DNA from: an uncultured Litoreibacter sp.
GTDB taxonomy: Bacteria > Pseudomonadota > Alphaproteobacteria > Rhodobacterales > Rhodobacteraceae
Length of the DNA: 64,000 bases
Direction: 5' to 3'
NCBI GenBank assembly: GCA_947494435.1
Contig: CANLUY010000002.1
Span: 248,001 to 312,000 of the forward strand
Made by a program: the position numbers and the translations under genes. Shown one piece after another: positions 19,922 through 26,623 of the stretch; position 1 is the first letter of the stretch; every line of letters begins with the position of its first letter. The notes below the pieces were generated by a model. It saw nothing but the letters and a program-made list of their open reading frames with translations, was not told the origin of the DNA and did no database searches.

Positions 19922-20611
19922 TCAATCGCAGATGCCGGCGAGTTTCACATCTTTCCAAGGCAATACAACCGGTGTTTTTGGAAGGACTGCGCTGAGCTGC
20001 TGAATTGGAAACTCTTGTGCAAGCAGCTTTTCGAGGCGTTTTGTCCGAGACGCCTTAGGCGCTAACGTCGCACAGCACACATATTCCGCAGCGATTGCCC
20101 CTTGCTGCTCATACCCGTAATCCAGAAATTCAGCAGTATTATCAAGTTCAAATAGATAGGGGTCTGGGCTGGCTTGATGTTCAGCGGCGGCTTTGAACGG
20201 GTGGTAACGGGTTCGGCCGCGATGCTGCCATTGCCATGTATGAACAAGCTCATGCGCTAAAAACATTGCAGCGCGTAGGTTAGCCGCACGCGGCCATGCA
20301 GCCATGTAGTCACGAGCAAGCGCGTCTGGATTAACTGTGATTTTGTTAAACAGAACCGTCGCGGCAGGTGAACCCGTGTAAAATTCCTCTCCCGGCGGCG
20401 GTGGCGGCAAAGTCTTTTCCGCACAGGTTGTCCGTGGTGGGTAGGGAACTGTCGCGGTATAGAGCTTAATCGCCGGATTGCGGATGATGCGTACTTTTGA
20501 GGTGTCCAAGCCGTCGCCATGGAAAGCTCTCGCGAAGGCTTCTTCTCCTTCCGATAAGGGACGACCACATGCTGCGACACATAATAGGGATATCAAGGCA
20601 ACTGATCTCAT
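19922..20611 (-). CDS. putative HEXXH metalloprotease-like lipoprotein
   Basis: 229 residues. The N-terminus MRSVALISLLCVAACG reads as a lipoprotein signal with Cys15 in VAAC. HELVH at residues 120-124, within LAHELVHTWQWQHRG, is an HEXXH zinc-binding motif, and a downstream Glu (AAEYV) could be a third ligand. A poly-Pro stretch lies near residue 70. The family is not recognised; similar hypothetical proteins with LAHELVHTWQ occur in this order. A periplasmic or outer-membrane location and peptidase activity are inference. Confidence 0.65.
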   Translation of the reverse strand: MRSVALISLLCVAACGRPLSEGEEAFARAFHGDGLDTSKVRIIRNPAIKLYTATVPYPPRTTCAEKTLPPPPPGEEFYTGSPAATVLFNKITVNPDALARDYMAAWPRAANLRAAMFLAHELVHTWQWQHRGRTRYHPFKAAAEHQASPDPYLFELDNTAEFLDYGYEQQGAIAAEYVCCATLAPKASRTKRLEKLLAQEFPIQQLSAVLPKTPVVLPWKDVKLAGICD

Positions 20612-20672
20612 GCAGAATAGACTGACGCGCGATTTTACTAAGGACAAGCAAGAAACGATCACTGCCTTCGGC

Positions 20673-21776
20673 TTAGGCTAGGTCTTCTTCTGCTTTAAGA
20701 CGCGCGACACCTTTGTAGAGAGCTGCGACAATCTCCGCTTCTGTGATGCAAAAGCGCGCTGATGGCGAAATGTCGACTGTCCCGTCTTTCCCTATGGGCG
20801 TATGTTCTCCGCCAACTCCACGTACAGCCAGACCAAGCGGTTTGGCAATTTCTTTGACACGTTCTGCAGTGCCATCCGCGGTTAGATTTGGCAGCGGCAA
20901 GTGAACCGACGCACGCATCGCTGTTCCAAGATTTGTCGGGCAGGAGGTCACGATGCCGTAGTCTTGCGATTGGGCGAAAGCCAGACCATCAATGGCGGAC
21001 ACGACATCCAAACCATGTTTGAGGCGATCAAATACCCGATTTAGAACGGTGCCGCGCTCCATGCACATAATGCGAAGATGATCTTCCTCCCCGACCCAAA
21101 TAATGAAGCTGCGGTCTTCAGACACGTAACACCCGCGACCAAATGGCCAGTCAGCTGAAATACCAGCTGCGTTAAGGAAGCGATCATTGCTCATATCTTT
21201 GAACATGATGTGGTCATCAATGAGTGCCCGGTAAACATCCTCGCTGATTTGATTGGGGTGGCCGGGTGTAAGGGAGTAATACGCGCCACCGTAAGACGGG
21301 TCGGCGGCTAAATGAGCGAAGGCAAGCATCATTTGCGCTTCTAGCTTGATGCGGTCTTCCCGGCGCATTGCGGCTGGCATCGGAAAATTCGCCAGATTGC
21401 GTCCTACCCGCACACGCATGGAGAGCGCAGGCAACCCAAGGATCGCAAAATCCAGTTGGTTGTTTTCTGGCATGCCCGTGACGGACGCTAGAGACCAATT
21501 GTTTTCGTGCCGTGCGTTCTCACTGACGTCGTGATGAACAGCGAGCGCTTGGGCAAAGAAGGGCCGCAAGTCATCATAGTCATTGGGTTGGCAGGCATAA
21601 CACCCCATCTCGCTATCGGGGTTTTCAATCCCAGACTTCATACAGTACAGGACGCGCTTTTGAAGGTTTTCCGTCAGGCTTCGAAAGTAATTTGCATCGA
21701 AGCACTGGAGGGCAATGTTTTGCGGGTGGTCGGCCGCAAGTGCTGAAATCTGGTCAATTTCGGTTTCGAAAGCCAC
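20673..21776 (-). CDS. arginine kinase (ATP:guanido phosphotransferase)
   Basis: A complete 367-residue phosphagen kinase, the length of animal enzymes. The N-terminal domain carries the guanidino-specificity loop (SGIENPDS, residues 48-55). The catalytic domain has MRVRVGRNLANFP (Arg121/Arg123), IDDHIMFK, WVGEEDHLRI (Glu231, matching Limulus AK Glu225, and Arg235), the signature CPTNLGT with Cys279, RASVH (Arg288) and RGVGGEHT (Arg319, Glu324). All nucleotide-phosphate arginines and the Glu-Cys-Glu substrate set are therefore present. It is not McsB, which lacks the N-terminal domain. The reaction is ATP + L-arginine to phosphoarginine, as an energy buffer. The neighbours give no metabolic partner. 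Confidence 0.93.
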   Translation of the reverse strand: MAFETEIDQISALAADHPQNIALQCFDANYFRSLTENLQKRVLYCMKSGIENPDSEMGCYACQPNDYDDLRPFFAQALAVHHDVSENARHENNWSLASVTGMPENNQLDFAILGLPALSMRVRVGRNLANFPMPAAMRREDRIKLEAQMMLAFAHLAADPSYGGAYYSLTPGHPNQISEDVYRALIDDHIMFKDMSNDRFLNAAGISADWPFGRGCYVSEDRSFIIWVGEEDHLRIMCMERGTVLNRVFDRLKHGLDVVSAIDGLAFAQSQDYGIVTSCPTNLGTAMRASVHLPLPNLTADGTAERVKEIAKPLGLAVRGVGGEHTPIGKDGTVDISPSARFCITEAEIVAALYKGVARLKAEEDLA

Positions 21777-21797
21777 GACGACATCCCTTCAAACACT

Positions 21798-22523
21798 TTA
21801 TCCAGAGCTTACACAGTTCGGTGTGATGCCGATGGCAAGAACGGGGCAGCCGCCATTGCGGCCCGCGTCGAGGCGATAAAGCAGCTTGCCCATCCAGGTC
21901 GTGGAAGCTCCAAATTTCTTATAGACGTCGTCGGCGCCTTCGGTGCCGTCCTTGTTGAGGACTTTACCGAGGGTTCTGAGGTATTGGCTATCTAGCGACG
22001 TGCCACGGGTCAGGATGATGCCCACGTCAATCGCGCCTGCGTCGTAGAAAGCAGAGAAGGCGGAGAGATCACGGTCATAGGTTTGATCCTTGCTGTTCCA
22101 TTCCAGATCCAGCGCGACCTTGCCTTTGACAAAGTCGATCCGGTGCCCGTCAAGGAAGCCGTGGCGGGTGTAGTGCGACAGGGTTTTGGAGGGTTGTTTG
22201 GCGTGGATCAGGCGGACGTTGAGATCGGCGGAGATGCGGGTTTCTTGCCATGCATCGCTGAACAGCGTGTCGACATAGCTCGCAATCGGGCCTTTGGAGC
22301 CGCCGGGGGTGCGGATCATGGTCTTGGTGATGTCGAAATTTTCGAGAGCTGTGGTGAGTTCCGCGAATTGCTCGGGGAAGCCGCCGTTCAGGATGGTGGC
22401 GGCGTTTCTATAGCTGAAAATCTCGAACTTCTTGTTCAGCGCATCGGGGAAAAGCTTAGCCACATGTGCGGCGTCGTCGGCGACTTTACCGGCGGAGATT
22501 TGGTCGTCGAACAGGTCTTGCAT
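21798..22523 (-). CDS. BglII/BstYI-like type II restriction endonuclease
   Basis: 241 residues. The likely active site is Asp130, then Glu141 and Asn143 in IDFVKGKVALDLEWNSKD. It is a PD-(D/E)xK variant with Asn where Lys is usual, as recalled for BstYI (BglII has Gln). Downstream, YDRDLSAFSAFYDAGAIDVGIILTR and the C-terminal VLAIGITP also fit the family. It starts 2 bases after the methyltransferase stop, so the two form one modification-restriction unit. The recognition site is not readable; relatives cut AGATCT or RGATCY. Confidence 0.82.
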   Translation of the reverse strand: MQDLFDDQISAGKVADDAAHVAKLFPDALNKKFEIFSYRNAATILNGGFPEQFAELTTALENFDITKTMIRTPGGSKGPIASYVDTLFSDAWQETRISADLNVRLIHAKQPSKTLSHYTRHGFLDGHRIDFVKGKVALDLEWNSKDQTYDRDLSAFSAFYDAGAIDVGIILTRGTSLDSQYLRTLGKVLNKDGTEGADDVYKKFGASTTWMGKLLYRLDAGRNGGCPVLAIGITPNCVSSG

Positions 22524-22525
22524 CT

Positions 22526-23158
22526 CTATTCTGCAGCGACGCCGGAATTGTATTTATAGGTGTCCCATGTGGGTTTGTAATCATCATCGGCCTGATTGCC
22601 CCAAACGGTCCATTTCTCGCGCTTGCCGCGCCCGAAGAGTTCCAGATACGGCCCCCACGAACAGCTTTCGATGATGTCATATTGCTCGTCAGGTTTGCGC
22701 GAATGTTCGCGCTTGCGGGTGCCGAACAGGTTCACCTGCGTGCGGCCGGGCTGCAGGGTGCGGGCGTTCTTGCCGCGCACGCCGAAGAGCAGGATTTCGG
22801 TGACATTGCGGAAATAGAAACCGACGCCACGCCCGTCCGATCCGCCATCTTTGCGGATCTTGTGCCAGATGATGTTGGATTTGTAATTGAACCCCCACGC
22901 ATCCAGAACCTGTAGCCCCTCTGGTAGCAGGGCGTTCGGGACCCAAAGGTAGCAATGCGCGGTGTCTTCGAGGTGATCGGCGACGGGCAGGTCGCAGATA
23001 TCCCGCAGCTCCATCGTGGGGTATCTTGCCAGACGTTTGTGTTCGGGCGCGACCTTGCCGGTGCGGTTGGTGAAACGCCAAGGTGGATCAGCCATCACGG
23101 TGGCGAATTTCTGTCCGTCGAGGAAACCCGTCAGATCTTTGTTTGCTTCGTTGGACAT
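22526..23158 (-). CDS. MT-A70 family DNA adenine methyltransferase
   Basis: 210 residues with the N6-adenine catalytic motif DPPW at 24-27 (VMADPPWRFTNRTG). The MT-A70 landmarks CYLWVPNALLPEGLQVLDAWGF, NIIWHKIRKDG and EILLFGVRG follow, ending ELFGRGKREKWTVWGNQ. It is expected to protect host DNA from the adjacent BglII-like nuclease. It is the first gene of the pair, so modification precedes restriction. Possible palindromic control sequence lies upstream at 23228-23245. Confidence 0.88.
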   Translation of the reverse strand: MSNEANKDLTGFLDGQKFATVMADPPWRFTNRTGKVAPEHKRLARYPTMELRDICDLPVADHLEDTAHCYLWVPNALLPEGLQVLDAWGFNYKSNIIWHKIRKDGGSDGRGVGFYFRNVTEILLFGVRGKNARTLQPGRTQVNLFGTRKREHSRKPDEQYDIIESCSWGPYLELFGRGKREKWTVWGNQADDDYKPTWDTYKYNSGVAAE

Positions 23159-23544
23159 GGCGCGCCTATGCAGTGAGGTGGGATCATGTAGATCAAATTT
23201 GCCGGCGAATCACAAGATTTAGTTAAGGTGATTGTTTGCAATCACCCGTTACGGCAGGGCATCTTCTGGGATGCCCGAGAAGCACGCCCCAGTGGCCAAA
23301 GGCGAATACCGGTTTTTCTTTTCACCCCGCGCGGAAGCAAGGGCGAAGCCCGCCGCGCATCGCCGTCACGCCCCCCGGGGCGGCGATATTGTTGATGTAG
23401 GTGTAACGTTTGCTCGAGGGGATGTGATTGGCAGCCATAAAGCGATTGCGGCCCAGAGGGAGGATCGCTTCCCCGCGTGACGGCGATGCGCGGCTTGGGT
23501 TTGTTTGGTGAGGGTGGTGGGCAGAATTGCATCGCCGCCACTTA
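23159..23544. other. intergenic region upstream of the methyltransferase gene
   Basis: 386 bases without a supported gene. It holds an 18-bp palindrome GTGATTG-TTTG-CAATCAC (23228-23245), a hairpin GGGCATC-6-GATGCCC near 23256-23275, and the 19-bp inverted repeat listed separately. Small ORFs here (for example 23232-23480, plus) have low-complexity, non-protein-like translations. The promoter of the methyltransferase/nuclease pair should lie here. Confidence 0.5.
23353..23493. repeat. 19-bp perfect inverted repeat, arms ~100 bp apart
   Basis: CCGCGCATCGCCGTCACGC at 23353-23371 is the exact reverse complement of 23475-23493. The 103 bases between the arms contain no ORF of note. The position is the junction between the McrB_N-HNH gene and the methyltransferase/nuclease pair. 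It could be the remnant ends of a small non-autonomous element or a recombination site; no target-site duplication was recognised. Confidence 0.6.
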
Positions 23545-24507
23545 CTAATTCACTCTGTAAGAGAATTTAATAGTCTGTCTGAGGCGATCTAGGTCGGCAG
23601 TATTTTCTTGTTTGTGGATCATTCGATGGCATGTCGGACACAGCACTAAGAAATCGTCAGGAACTTTGTACCGCCTCGTTTCTCCCTCAGCCAATCCACT
23701 GATTGGTTTGGAGTGGTGAATGTCTAACGGCGTATGCTGGAGTTTCCCTTGATAGTCGTAGTGAATCGCAGGATCTAGACCGCATCCCTGACATATTGGC
23801 GCGGTTACTTTCAGGACCTCTTTTCGAACATTCTCTGAGCGTTCAATCCTTCTTGAAAGAGCATATCTGCGGGTTTCTTCGATATTTTTTGTACCTGATT
23901 CCTCTTGCATGATGTCAGTTGGGGTTGACCCGCCTCGGTCGATTAATGCCTCATAGGCATAGATCATGTTTTGCAGGTCTTCATAAAACAATGCCTCGTC
24001 AATCGCTCTTGCCTTATACTTCCTACCAAAGGAGTGGCCTGCCATATATCCGGATGGAAGCGAAGCGATTGAACCAAGATCGATAGGCGCGTTTTCAAAT
24101 TTCTTTGAGTATTCGGGAATACGAAAAGCCATGTCTTGCGCGCGACGCTTAAGAACTTCGCGGCCTCGTTTCTCTCCAAATTCCTGGTAGACCTGCGTGG
24201 TGCCTTGGTTCAATGAAAGATAGATATCCTCTGTCTGGGGATTGATGAGATAAACAATATAGAAACCAGTCGTCGCACTTTTTGTGATAAGTGGATCAAA
24301 GAACCCTAGCCAGGGGACTGCGGCCCAAACACCGGCCCCCACACTCGCTTTTACCGTCAATGTGAAAGGGAGGTAGATAAGTTGTTTCTTTGCTTCGGTC
24401 GCGATGTCATTGCGAACAAAATTGCCTAGTTCATTGTCCGCGAATGGTTTCCCGCGTGCATAGACAAACTCTTTTGCCAAGCGAGCGAGCATTTCATGGA
24501 GCATCAA
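23545..24507 (-). CDS. McrB_N-HNH endonuclease (modification-dependent type)
   Basis: 320 residues. Residues ~10-185 match the McrB N-terminal (DUF3578) base-recognition domain: VPWLGFFDPLITKSATTGFYIVYL and IYLSLNQGTTQVYQEFG. Residues ~236-300 form an HNH nuclease: Cys239/Cys242, IHH (264-265), and CPTCHRMIH with Cys290/Cys293/His294/His298. McrB_N reads modified cytosine in E. coli, so a type IV-like enzyme cutting modified foreign DNA is inferred. It starts 26 bases after parE. It appears more A+T-rich than parE, consistent with acquisition. Confidence 0.85.
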   Translation of the reverse strand: MMLHEMLARLAKEFVYARGKPFADNELGNFVRNDIATEAKKQLIYLPFTLTVKASVGAGVWAAVPWLGFFDPLITKSATTGFYIVYLINPQTEDIYLSLNQGTTQVYQEFGEKRGREVLKRRAQDMAFRIPEYSKKFENAPIDLGSIASLPSGYMAGHSFGRKYKARAIDEALFYEDLQNMIYAYEALIDRGGSTPTDIMQEESGTKNIEETRRYALSRRIERSENVRKEVLKVTAPICQGCGLDPAIHYDYQGKLQHTPLDIHHSKPISGLAEGETRRYKVPDDFLVLCPTCHRMIHKQENTADLDRLRQTIKFSYRVN

Positions 24508-24533
24508 TCGCTCCGATAATTCTTCCTTTCGCG

Positions 24534-26486
24534 TTAAACATCCACATCCTCAACGAACCGGGCGTTCTCCTGAATATACTCGAACCGTAGCTCCGGCTTC
24601 TTGCCCATCAACCGCTCGACCAGATCACCGGTCTCGCCGGGGACGTCCTCGTCGACTGTCACGCGTATCAACTGCCGTGTTTTGGGGTTCATCGTGGTCT
24701 CTTTGAGGTCCTTGGCGTCCATTTCGCCCAAGCCCTTGAAACGCTGGACGTCGATTTTTCCTTTGCCGCCAAGGCCTTTCTCCATCATCCGGTCTTTCTC
24801 TGCGTCATTGGGGACGTAGATGCGGTGGGCGCCTTGGGTGAGGCGGTAGAGGGGCGGGCAGGCGAGGTAGAGGTGGCCTTGGTCGATCAGCGGGCGCATC
24901 TGGATGAAGAAGAAGGTCATCAGCAGCGAGGCGATGTGGGCGCCGTCGACATCGGCGTCGGTCATGATGATGATCTTCTCGTAGCGTAGGTCGTCGGCGT
25001 TGAATTTTGCGCCCATGCCGCAGCCCAAGGCTTCGCAAAGATCGGAAATCTCGGCATTGGTGGTCAGCTTGTTTGAGGCCGCGCCCAGCACGTTGAGGAT
25101 TTTGCCTTTGAGCGGCAGAAGCGCTTGGGTTTCGCGGTTGCGCGCGCCTTTGGCGGAGCCGCCGGCGGAGTCGCCCTCCACGATGAACAGCTCCGTGCCT
25201 TCGCGGCTCTTGGCTGTGCAGTCGGTGAGCTTGCCGGGCAGGCGGAGTTTCTTGGTGGCGGATTTGCGCGCGGTTTCCTTTTCCTGACGGCGGCGCAGGC
25301 GTTCTTCGGCGCGCAGGATCAGGAAGTCGAGGATGGCACCGGCGGATTTTGTGTCGGCGGCGAGCCAGTTGTCGAAATGGTCGCGCACGGCGTTTTCGAC
25401 CATGCGTTGGGCGTCGACGGTGGCAAGGCGGTCTTTGGTTTGGCCTACGAATTCGGGATCGCGGATGAAGCAGGAGACCAGCGCGCCTGCGCCAGTGGTC
25501 AGGTCTTCGCGGGTGATGGTGCCGGCCTTTTTGTTGTTGGTTAGCTCGCCGTAAGCTTTGATGCCCTTGAGGATCGCGGCCCAAAAACCGGCCTCATGCG
25601 TGCCGCCTTCGGGGGTGGGCACGGTGTTACAGAAAGACTGCATGAAGCCGTCGCGCGAGGGGGTCCAGTTGATCGCCCATTCGACCTTGCCGGGGGCGTT
25701 GAACTTCTCGAATGAGACGGAGCCTGCGAAGGGCTGGTCGGCGTAAGTGGTTGACCCGCCGAGCGTTTGCATGAGGTAGTCGGAGAGGCCGCCGGGGAAA
25801 CGGAACTTGGCTTCCTTGGGCGTGTTGCCGTCGTCGATGCCGGATTTCCAGCGGATTTCGACGCCGGAGAAGAGGTAGGCTTTGCTTTCGGCCATCTTGT
25901 AGAGGACGGCGGGTTTGAGTTTGAGGGGGCCGAAGATCTCCGCGTCAGGGTGGAAGGTGACGGCGGTGCCGCGGCGGTTGGGGGCGGCGCCGATTTTTTC
26001 GAGCTTGCCTTGCGGGACACCGCGGGAGAATTCCATGGCGAAGAGTTCTTTATTGCGGGCGACTTCCACGCGCAGATGGTCGGACAGCGCGTTAACGACA
26101 GAGGAGCCCACGCCGTGCAGACCGCCGGAGGTCTGGTAGCTGTCGCCGGAGAATTTGCCGCCAGCGTTGAGCGTGCAGAAGATGATTTCCAGCGCAGATT
26201 TGGACGGGTCTTTGGGGTGCGGGCCGGTGGGGATACCACGGCCATTATCGCGGATGGAGACGTGGCCACCATCATGCAGTTCGACCTCGATCCACGTGGC
26301 GTGCCCGGCGACGGCCTCATCCATGGAGTTGTCGATGATCTCGGCGACCATATGGTGCAGCGCGCGCTCGTCTTTGCCGCCGATATACATGCCGGGGCGC
26401 AGGCGGACATGCTCCATATCCTCGAGCACCTCGATAGAGGAGGCGTCATATTGATCGGCGGATTCTGTTTTCAGAAGGTCGGACAT
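24534..26486 (-). CDS. parE: DNA topoisomerase IV subunit B
   Basis: 650 residues, the ParE rather than GyrB length. GHKL ATPase motifs: EIIDNSMDEAVAGHA, DNGRGIPTGPHPK, GGLHGVGSSVVNALS. The TOPRIM region has EGDSAGGSAKGARNRETQALLPLKG-type residues and IIMTDADVDGAHI. The C-terminus has QRFKGLGEMDAKDLKETTMNP. Start at 26486 (MSDLLKTES) because upstream residues are not family-like. ParE with ParC decatenates daughter chromosomes. G+C at third positions is visibly higher than in the neighbours, which produces long antisense ORFs. Confidence 0.96.
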   Translation of the reverse strand: MSDLLKTESADQYDASSIEVLEDMEHVRLRPGMYIGGKDERALHHMVAEIIDNSMDEAVAGHATWIEVELHDGGHVSIRDNGRGIPTGPHPKDPSKSALEIIFCTLNAGGKFSGDSYQTSGGLHGVGSSVVNALSDHLRVEVARNKELFAMEFSRGVPQGKLEKIGAAPNRRGTAVTFHPDAEIFGPLKLKPAVLYKMAESKAYLFSGVEIRWKSGIDDGNTPKEAKFRFPGGLSDYLMQTLGGSTTYADQPFAGSVSFEKFNAPGKVEWAINWTPSRDGFMQSFCNTVPTPEGGTHEAGFWAAILKGIKAYGELTNNKKAGTITREDLTTGAGALVSCFIRDPEFVGQTKDRLATVDAQRMVENAVRDHFDNWLAADTKSAGAILDFLILRAEERLRRRQEKETARKSATKKLRLPGKLTDCTAKSREGTELFIVEGDSAGGSAKGARNRETQALLPLKGKILNVLGAASNKLTTNAEISDLCEALGCGMGAKFNADDLRYEKIIIMTDADVDGAHIASLLMTFFFIQMRPLIDQGHLYLACPPLYRLTQGAHRIYVPNDAEKDRMMEKGLGGKGKIDVQRFKGLGEMDAKDLKETTMNPKTRQLIRVTVDEDVPGETGDLVERLMGKKPELRFEYIQENARFVEDVDV

Positions 26487-26623
26487 GGTTGGCTGCTCTG
26501 CTCTTTTGATTGCGGGCAAGTATGCCAGAGGGAGCGGAGCGGGGGAAGAGGCGGCGTGGTTCAAAGGTGTCGTCGAATATGCACATAAGGTAGGTCTTAG
26601 GTTATCGAACAATAGTAGCCGCT

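What the first reader, a model, noticed from the sequence alone, without database searches (positions are those of the whole stretch)
20673..21776. Complete animal-type arginine kinase in an alphaproteobacterium
Sequence shows a full-length phosphagen kinase: N-terminal specificity loop SGIENPDS, Glu231 in EEDHLRI, signature CPTNLGT with Cys279, Glu324 in GGEHT, and all ATP-phosphate arginines. Known: phosphagen kinases are mainly animal/protist enzymes with scattered bacterial cases (for example Myxococcus, Desulfotalea). Inference: a phosphoarginine energy buffer acquired by transfer, lying beside a defence island. No arginine-uptake or metabolic partner lies beside it.
Basis: partly seen in the sequence, partly recalled or inferred. 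Interest (0 to 1): 0.8.

Follow-up and report, generated by a model that had tools for sequence, protein, structure and literature searches.

The report
Bacterial arginine kinase, ciliate-type lineage
A bacterium carries what looks like an intact gene for arginine kinase, the enzyme many invertebrates and protists use to bank energy as phosphoarginine; it belongs to a rare bacterial lineage that resembles a ciliate enzyme more than animal ones, and it sits at a spot where related bacteria carry different genes.

Summary
The ORF at 20673-21776 (minus strand) encodes a 367-residue phosphagen kinase with the catalytic residues expected of an arginine kinase (E231, C279, E324; R121, R123, R235, R288, R319). 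It is not McsB.

The label 'animal-type' does not hold. The closest solved structure is arginine kinase 3 of the ciliate Paramecium. The window protein and 18 bacterial relatives share with it a five-residue insert and a Ser-Pro motif that are absent from the 14 other phosphagen kinases compared (8 animal, 2 McsB, 4 other bacterial rows). Trees agree, but support falls when four long-branched rows are removed, and AU tests do not settle where the ciliate row goes.

Relatives are rare: 0 of 20 other genomes of the genus, 3 of 197 of the family. In 15 same-genus genomes examined the site beside parE lacks the kinase and mostly holds other genes; one has the same BglII restriction-modification pair without it. 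So the gene looks like cargo at a variable site, not part of a defence system.

Most likely it makes phosphoarginine as a fast ATP buffer. Arginine as substrate is inferred; His81, at a known specificity position, leaves doubt. Bacterial arginine kinases are already known: a new member of a known kind, with a corrected lineage.

The parts
20673..21776 (-). arginine kinase gene, ciliate/bacterial-type lineage, 367 aa, GTG start
   Evidence: PF00217 177.7 bits; best single-domain PDB match 7ews, 248 bits; model m0785e16f5406; residue map
21597..21614 (-). codons of S55-Y60 (SEMGCY), equivalent of the carboxylate loop
   Evidence: alignment to Limulus 63-68; role of the loop recalled
21531..21536 (-). 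codons of His81-His82; His81 is at the guanidino-specificity position (95 of Danio creatine kinase)
   Evidence: meaning of the position from PMC3836730 passages
21798..22523 (-). BglII-type restriction endonuclease, 21 bp upstream of the kinase (context, not part of it)
   Evidence: PF09195 139 bits; no PADLOC match
22526..23158 (-). MT-A70 DNA methyltransferase, presumed partner of the BglII-type enzyme (context)
   Evidence: PF05063 96.3 bits; PADLOC MTase_II 299.4 bits
23545..24507 (-). MrcB_N domain plus HNH, restriction-like gene (context)
   Evidence: PF12102 155 bits; HNH 19.7 bits, below its cut-off of 21.4; weak PADLOC mREase_IV 22.8 bits
24534..26612 (-). parE, conserved border of the variable site
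   Evidence: match of 77% identity or more in 19 of 21 genomes of the genus, own included; G591 has a 68% fragment and G590 only a 41% paralogue. Name by eye, no family search
19922..20662 (-). uncharacterised gene, conserved other border of the site, 10 bp after the kinase
   Evidence: present in 14 of 15 same-genus regions; no Pfam family

Best explanation
The gene encodes a working single-domain arginine kinase (ATP + L-arginine <-> ADP + N-phospho-L-arginine) of the lineage shared by certain Pseudomonadota and the ciliate Paramecium. The cell most likely uses it as an ATP and phosphate buffer: charging arginine when ATP is plentiful and returning the phosphate to ADP during sudden shortage. 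It reached this species by transfer between bacteria, after the genus split, into a variable site between parE and a conserved gene, beside an R-M pair with which it may share a transcript but not a function. Shown: family, intact active site, lineage marks, patchy distribution, variable site. Inferred: arginine as substrate, activity, buffering role, transfer from a bacterium, shared transcript.
For: Heterologous expression of a Trypanosoma cruzi phosphagen kinase in E. coli or yeast raised resistance to oxidative agents, as stated in a passage of PMC3679164.
Against: No activity measured here. Position 81 is His, where Limulus, shrimp and Paramecium have Tyr and where cytoplasmic taurocyamine kinases have His (PMC3836730 passage); 6 of 19 family rows have His, 11 Tyr, 2 Phe. 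The same paper gives Tyr for trematode taurocyamine kinases, so the residue is no sure guide either way. G64 and V65 of Limulus are Glu and Met here. Apart from argB, the neighbours scanned in relatives show no plain link to arginine or energy. Ciliate affinity is 99/96 with 34 rows but 88/90 with 30 rows, and AU does not reject the ciliate joining the animals (p 0.27). GC (0.53, window 0.536) gives no sign of recent arrival. No eukaryote genome could be searched, so closer eukaryote relatives are not excluded.
Confidence: 0.6

Rival explanations
1. A phosphagen kinase for another guanidino compound (taurocyamine, glycocyamine, agmatine or similar), with the same chemistry but a different buffer molecule.
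For: His81 at the specificity position, as in cytoplasmic taurocyamine kinases; E56 and M57 in the loop; one relative (G385) lies by a betI-type regulator of choline/betaine metabolism.
Against: E324, C279 and Y60 as in arginine kinases; loop of arginine-kinase length; 11 of 19 family rows have Tyr at position 81; one relative lies beside argB.
Confidence: 0.18
2. A protein-arginine kinase (McsB-like) that marks proteins for degradation.
For: Homologous catalytic domain; five NCBIfam McsB models match, at up to 106.5 bits.
Against: All five score far below their cut-offs (106.5 against 385, 96.5 against 500). McsB structures align only within residues 117-365, so the N-terminal domain here has no McsB counterpart and McsB's C-terminal part none here. 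The two McsB rows form a separate 100/100 group; an AU test of family plus McsB, which is the same split as ciliate plus animals, is not rejected (p 0.26).
Confidence: 0.03
3. Transferred directly from an animal (the source that the first reader's 'animal-type' suggests).
For: Same fold; 26-32% identity to the animal structures among the 50 matches listed. Animal genomes could not be searched here.
Against: 18 bacterial relatives at 48-72% identity; animal rows form their own group (96/96 in 30 rows) and lack the insert and Ser-Pro motif. Other bacterial rows, not this one, score best against animal-type kinases.
Confidence: 0.03
4. The kinase is a functional part of the neighbouring restriction or defence cluster, for example sustaining or draining ATP during phage attack.
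For: 21 bp downstream of a BglII-type endonuclease on the same strand; the site holds an AbiU2 HEPN gene in G580.
Against: G593 has the same R-M pair without the kinase; no PADLOC model matches the kinase; none of 15 near neighbours scanned in other loci was named a defence gene by Pfam or NCBIfam; no relative found in two IMG/VR scans, and the 8 phage matches are partial and distant.
Confidence: 0.04
5. A decaying passenger gene without function.
For: Rare single copy; end branch 0.33, longer than the median of 0.2; selection on the window gene itself could not be measured.
Against: Full-length, catalytic residues kept; low dN/dS among relatives.
Confidence: 0.04

Closest known systems
Paramecium tetraurelia arginine kinase AK3 (PDB 7ews)
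   Same: Best single-domain sequence match (248 bits) and best structural match (E 3.2e-34, TM 0.86); five-residue insert and Ser-Pro motif shared
   Different: 35% identity; loop is SQVGIS, not SEMGCY; Tyr, not His, at the specificity position
Known bacterial arginine kinases (Desulfotalea psychrophila, Sulfurovum, Moritella, Myxococcus xanthus)
   Same: Arginine kinase in a bacterium; list and open question of origin from passages of PMC6429109
Animal arginine kinases (1bg0 and 1rl9, Limulus by recall; Litopenaeus 4bg4)
   Same: Catalytic residues, loop length, fold
   Different: No insert, Ser-Asn in place of Ser-Pro, lower single-domain scores (173 bits or less), separate group in trees
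McsB protein-arginine kinase
   Same: Homologous catalytic domain
   Different: Different domain architecture, scores far below curated cut-offs
Taurocyamine kinase (Schistosoma 4wo8)
   Same: Fold and catalytic set
   Different: Schistosoma loop is shorter and has Arg at the Y60 place; the cytoplasmic form of other worms shares His at the specificity position (PMC3836730 passage)

Membership tests
Phosphagen kinase (ATP:guanido phosphotransferase) | PF00217 catalytic domain over its cut-off | tested here: met
   177.7 bits against 22.4
Phosphagen kinase (ATP:guanido phosphotransferase) | N-terminal substrate-loop domain (PF02807) | tested here: inconclusive
   24.8 bits, just below 25.7; the model has a helical N-terminal part and aligns over nearly its whole length to arginine kinases
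Arginine kinase | Catalytic Glu, Cys, Glu and five phosphate-binding Arg (roles recalled) | tested here: met
   E231, C279, E324, R121, R123, R235, R288, R319
Arginine kinase | Short guanidino-specificity loop with Tyr68 equivalent (role recalled) | tested here: met
   No four-residue creatine-kinase insertion; Y60 present
Arginine kinase | Tyr at Danio position 95 | tested here: not met
   His81; Tyr in 11 of 19 family rows and in the Limulus, shrimp, sea anemone and Paramecium rows. It bears on substrate preference, is not exclusive to arginine kinases, and lowers the claim of arginine specificity
Arginine kinase | Phosphorylates free L-arginine | not testable with these tools
   Needs enzyme assay
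Ciliate/bacterial-type arginine kinase group | Five-residue insert (SLTPGHP-like) and Ser-Pro in the ISPSAR motif | tested here: met
   20 of 20 rows of the group, 0 of 14 others; the group was defined here, not taken from a paper
Ciliate/bacterial-type arginine kinase group | Forms one clade with Paramecium AK3 | tested here: inconclusive
   99/96 with 34 rows, with long-branch warnings; 88/90 with 30 rows and AU p 0.27 for the ciliate with animals
McsB | Curated McsB model over cut-off, McsB architecture | tested here: not met
   Best 106.5 bits against a cut-off of 385; architecture differs
Taurocyamine kinase | Shorter trematode loop | tested here: not met
   Loop keeps arginine-kinase length
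Taurocyamine kinase | His at position 95 (cytoplasmic form) | tested here: met
   His81; meaning from PMC3836730; a single residue, not decisive

The most novel reading that the evidence does not exclude
The ciliate phosphagen system came from bacteria: Pseudomonadota hold the older, more diverse reservoir of this kinase lineage, the Paramecium enzyme branches inside it (as in both trees here, weakly), and animal-type and ciliate-type kinases are both at home in bacteria, even side by side in one Chromatiales assembly, so phosphagen buffering would be a bacterial trait that eukaryotes acquired more than once.
Probability: 0.2. Interest if true: 0.65.

Novelty: new member of a known kind. Interest (0 to 1): 0.38.

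Why it matters
Whether bacterial arginine kinases are ancient or borrowed from eukaryotes is described as still debated (PMC6429109, passage). This family adds members titled as Alphaproteobacteria and Gammaproteobacteria to a lineage with clear shared marks and a ciliate relative of solved structure. Two of the 14 contig records are titled as strains (Aliiroseovarius subalbicans N1Y82 and Rhodobacteraceae EL129), which may allow work on live cells. It gives a way to test the direction of transfer and whether bacteria run a phosphoarginine buffer.

Tried and rejected
Viral carriage: two scans of IMG/VR, one with the protein and one with the 21-row alignment, confirmed no relative. Phage records gave 8 matches covering 41-68% of the query at 28-30% identity, the part that McsB shares; none of the 8 is annotated. 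Plasmid records gave 21, of which 20 were listed: one (Candidatus Bandiella) covers over 80% of the query; the 19 others are partial matches in Listeria, Clostridioides, Bacillus, Paenibacillus, Monoglobus and Acetoanaerobium, 16 of them annotated as protein arginine kinase.

Foreign base composition: GC of the gene 0.53, window 0.536, no signal. Kinase remnant in the 15 relatives' sites: none; best tblastn E 2.7 over 25 residues. dN/dS for the window gene itself: saturated in 9 of 9 pairs. Conserved neighbourhood: none with the window; genes that look by eye like dnaX and recR lie near the kinase in L002, L008, L009 and L014. Conserved content of the variable site: besides ORFs similar to a cytochrome-c-like gene (11 ORFs in 9 of 15 regions; one tested by Pfam) and four smaller sets of similar ORFs, 18 ORFs of 150 aa or more each occur in one region only, over 14 of 15 regions; these are mechanical ORFs.

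Literature: searches. No paper holding 'arginine kinase', 'alphaproteobacteria' and 'phosphoarginine' together was found, and the four papers holding 'arginine kinase' and 'Rhodobacteraceae' look by their listings to be about other things. The key papers on bacterial arginine kinases are not held: Bragg 2012, Suzuki 2013, Andrews 2008; I saw only their titles in a reference list.

Sampling limits: one genome-contig scan was allowed and it used short peptide patterns of this protein, so distant members are missed. Only one ciliate sequence and no Desulfotalea, Sulfurovum, Moritella or Myxococcus sequence could be included. No eukaryote genome was searched.

Full report
What is there. The ORF at 20673-21776 on the minus strand starts with GTG, is open for 367 codons and has a modest purine-rich stretch (GAAGGGA) before the start. 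Pfam gives PF00217 at 177.7 bits (cut-off 22.4) and the N-terminal PF02807 at 24.8 (cut-off 25.7). No other PF00217 match exists in the genome. The start agrees with several relatives, whose proteins align from the same column.

Active site. A 34-row alignment read in Limulus numbering puts E231, C279 and E324 on E225, C271 and E314, and R121, R123, R235, R288 and R319 on the five phosphate-binding arginines; the functional labels of the Limulus residues are recalled. H82, H189, H292 and H325 match Limulus H90, H185, H284 and H315. Two departures matter: Glu and Met stand where Limulus has Gly64 and Val65, and His81 stands where Limulus has Tyr89. That position (95 in Danio creatine kinase) is reported to be Tyr in arginine kinase and Arg, Ile, His and Lys in creatine, glycocyamine, taurocyamine and lombricine kinases, though trematode taurocyamine kinases have Tyr (PMC3836730, passages). 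In the window's family of 19 rows it is Tyr in 11, His in 6 and Phe in 2. Arginine is therefore the likely but not the certain substrate.

Structure. AlphaFold with a 15-row alignment gave mean pLDDT 89.0 and pTM 0.86. [quoted passage not shown]

Lineage. By sequence, 7ews is the best single-domain match (248 bits; the next single-domain chain scores 173; the two two-domain chains score more only as a sum, 160-167 per domain). All 19 family rows and 7ews share a five-residue insert (SLTPGHP-like) and a Ser-Pro where others have Ser-Asn: 20 of 20 against 0 of 14 (8 animal, 2 McsB and 4 other bacterial rows). A 34-row tree places the family with 7ews at 99/96 and the animal rows, together with two divergent bacterial rows, in another group at 95/97; the program warns of long branches, that of 7ews among them. 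Without the four long bacterial rows the figures are 88/90 for family plus ciliate and 96/96 for animals, and AU does not reject the ciliate joining animals (p 0.27), the family plus animals without the ciliate (p 0.0503) or the family alone (p 0.27). A first AU test on 34 rows gave p 3.9e-05 against family plus animals, but that grouping also shut out the four other bacterial rows, so I do not lean on it. In both trees 7ews branches inside the bacterial rows, with weak support (87/50 and 83/82). So 'animal-type' is wrong on the shared marks and the scores, while the exact branch of the ciliate and the direction of transfer are open.

McsB. Five McsB models match well below their cut-offs. McsB structures align within residues 117-365 only, which leaves the N-terminal domain here and the C-terminal part of McsB unmatched.

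Distribution. Genomes with a PF00217 match, own genome included: genus 1 of 21, family 4 of 198, class 2 of 385, phylum 4 of 398; draws overlap. Other than the window: genus 0 of 20, family 3 of 197, class 1 of 384, phylum 3 of 397. Two further families, chosen because a match was known in them: 2 of 6 in that of G214, 2 of 74 in that of G805. A scan of public genome contigs found 14 loci: 13 with a protein of 56-72% identity to the window's (one cut at its N-terminus by the contig end) and one 55-residue fragment. They are titled as Rhodobacteraceae or its genera, Hyphomicrobiales, Rhizobiaceae, Anderseniella, other Alphaproteobacteria, and in three cases gammaproteobacterial, one of these Chromatiales. 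Twelve of the 14 are titled as metagenome-assembled or uncultured, and such labels can be wrong.

The site. A parE of 77% identity or more is present in 19 of 21 genomes of the genus, own included; G591 has a fragment and G590 only a paralogue. I took 15 regions of the 20 other genomes. The conserved gene at 19922-20662 is found in 14 of 15 and the SDR after it in 14 of 15. Between parE and these, G593 has the MT-A70 and BglII-type genes (91% and 79% identity) and no kinase; G592 has the MrcB_N-HNH gene; G580 has an AbiU2 HEPN gene and G597 a BRCT gene; a cytochrome-c-like ORF recurs in 9 of 15 and is not seen in the window, and 18 ORFs of 150 aa or more occur in one region each. tblastn of the kinase against the 15 regions gave nothing below E 2.7. 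PADLOC recognises the methyltransferase and, weakly, the MrcB_N-HNH protein, but neither the BglII-type enzyme nor the kinase, nor six ORFs of other species' sites. The site is a place of gene exchange with some defence-like cargo. The kinase is one item of it.

Neighbours elsewhere. In L002, L008, L009 and L014 the kinase lies near genes that look like dnaX and recR (named by eye), a different place from the window's. In two family genomes (G387, G477) it lies beside a trpA-like gene (trpA confirmed for G477); in G385 beside betI; in G654 it is followed 6 bp later by argB. I scanned 15 different near neighbours (each, 5 in both) and only argB has a plain arginine link.

How it works. Most likely as a reversible arginine kinase that buffers ATP. 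A passage of PMC3679164 says that a Trypanosoma cruzi phosphagen kinase expressed in E. coli or yeast raised resistance to oxidative agents; this suggests that such an enzyme can act in a bacterium without special partners. Activity, substrate and role here are inferred.

Novelty. Arginine kinases in bacteria have been described (PMC6429109 passages name Desulfotalea, Myxococcus, Moritella and Sulfurovum). I did not find an alphaproteobacterial one in print with the searches, in an open-licence library that lacks most subscription papers. It is a new member of a known kind, worth moderate interest for the lineage question.

Noticed in passing
L003:6752-9110: A Chromatiales assembly has two phosphagen kinase genes in tandem: an animal-like one, in which the catalytic Glu225 equivalent is Gly, overlaps by 11 bp the start of a window-type one. 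A bacterial parallel to the two-domain animal arginine kinases, if the assembly is right.
   Followed up: partly
L024:3830-4927: The plasmid of Candidatus Bandiella woodruffii, sampled with the ciliate Euplotes, encodes a phosphagen kinase annotated as hypothetical protein; it scores higher against animal-type enzymes than against the ciliate one.
   Followed up: partly
L048:5480-6628 and L049:4758-5771: Two small genomes (1.3-1.4 Mb, one family, same class as the window's genome) carry divergent phosphagen kinases. In G214 the Limulus R229 and H185 positions are Thr and Gly and position 95 is Arg, as in the creatine kinase rows, so its substrate or activity may differ.
   Followed up: partly
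L047:5428-7440: In G654 a window-type arginine kinase is followed 6 bp later by argB, acetylglutamate kinase.
   Followed up: yes
L022:1501-1632 and L023:1501-1602 (G654:C37:46028-46260): G654 also has two short adjoining PF00217 fragments on another contig, perhaps remains of a second kinase.
   Followed up: no
window 19922-26612: The stretch downstream of parE is a variable site in this genus, with R-M, MrcB_N-HNH, AbiU2 HEPN, BRCT and unassigned ORFs in different species.
   Followed up: partly
L013:4136-7919: In the Rhizobiaceae locus two alike pairs of ORFs that look like an insertion sequence lie in opposite orientation just upstream of the kinase gene.
   Followed up: no
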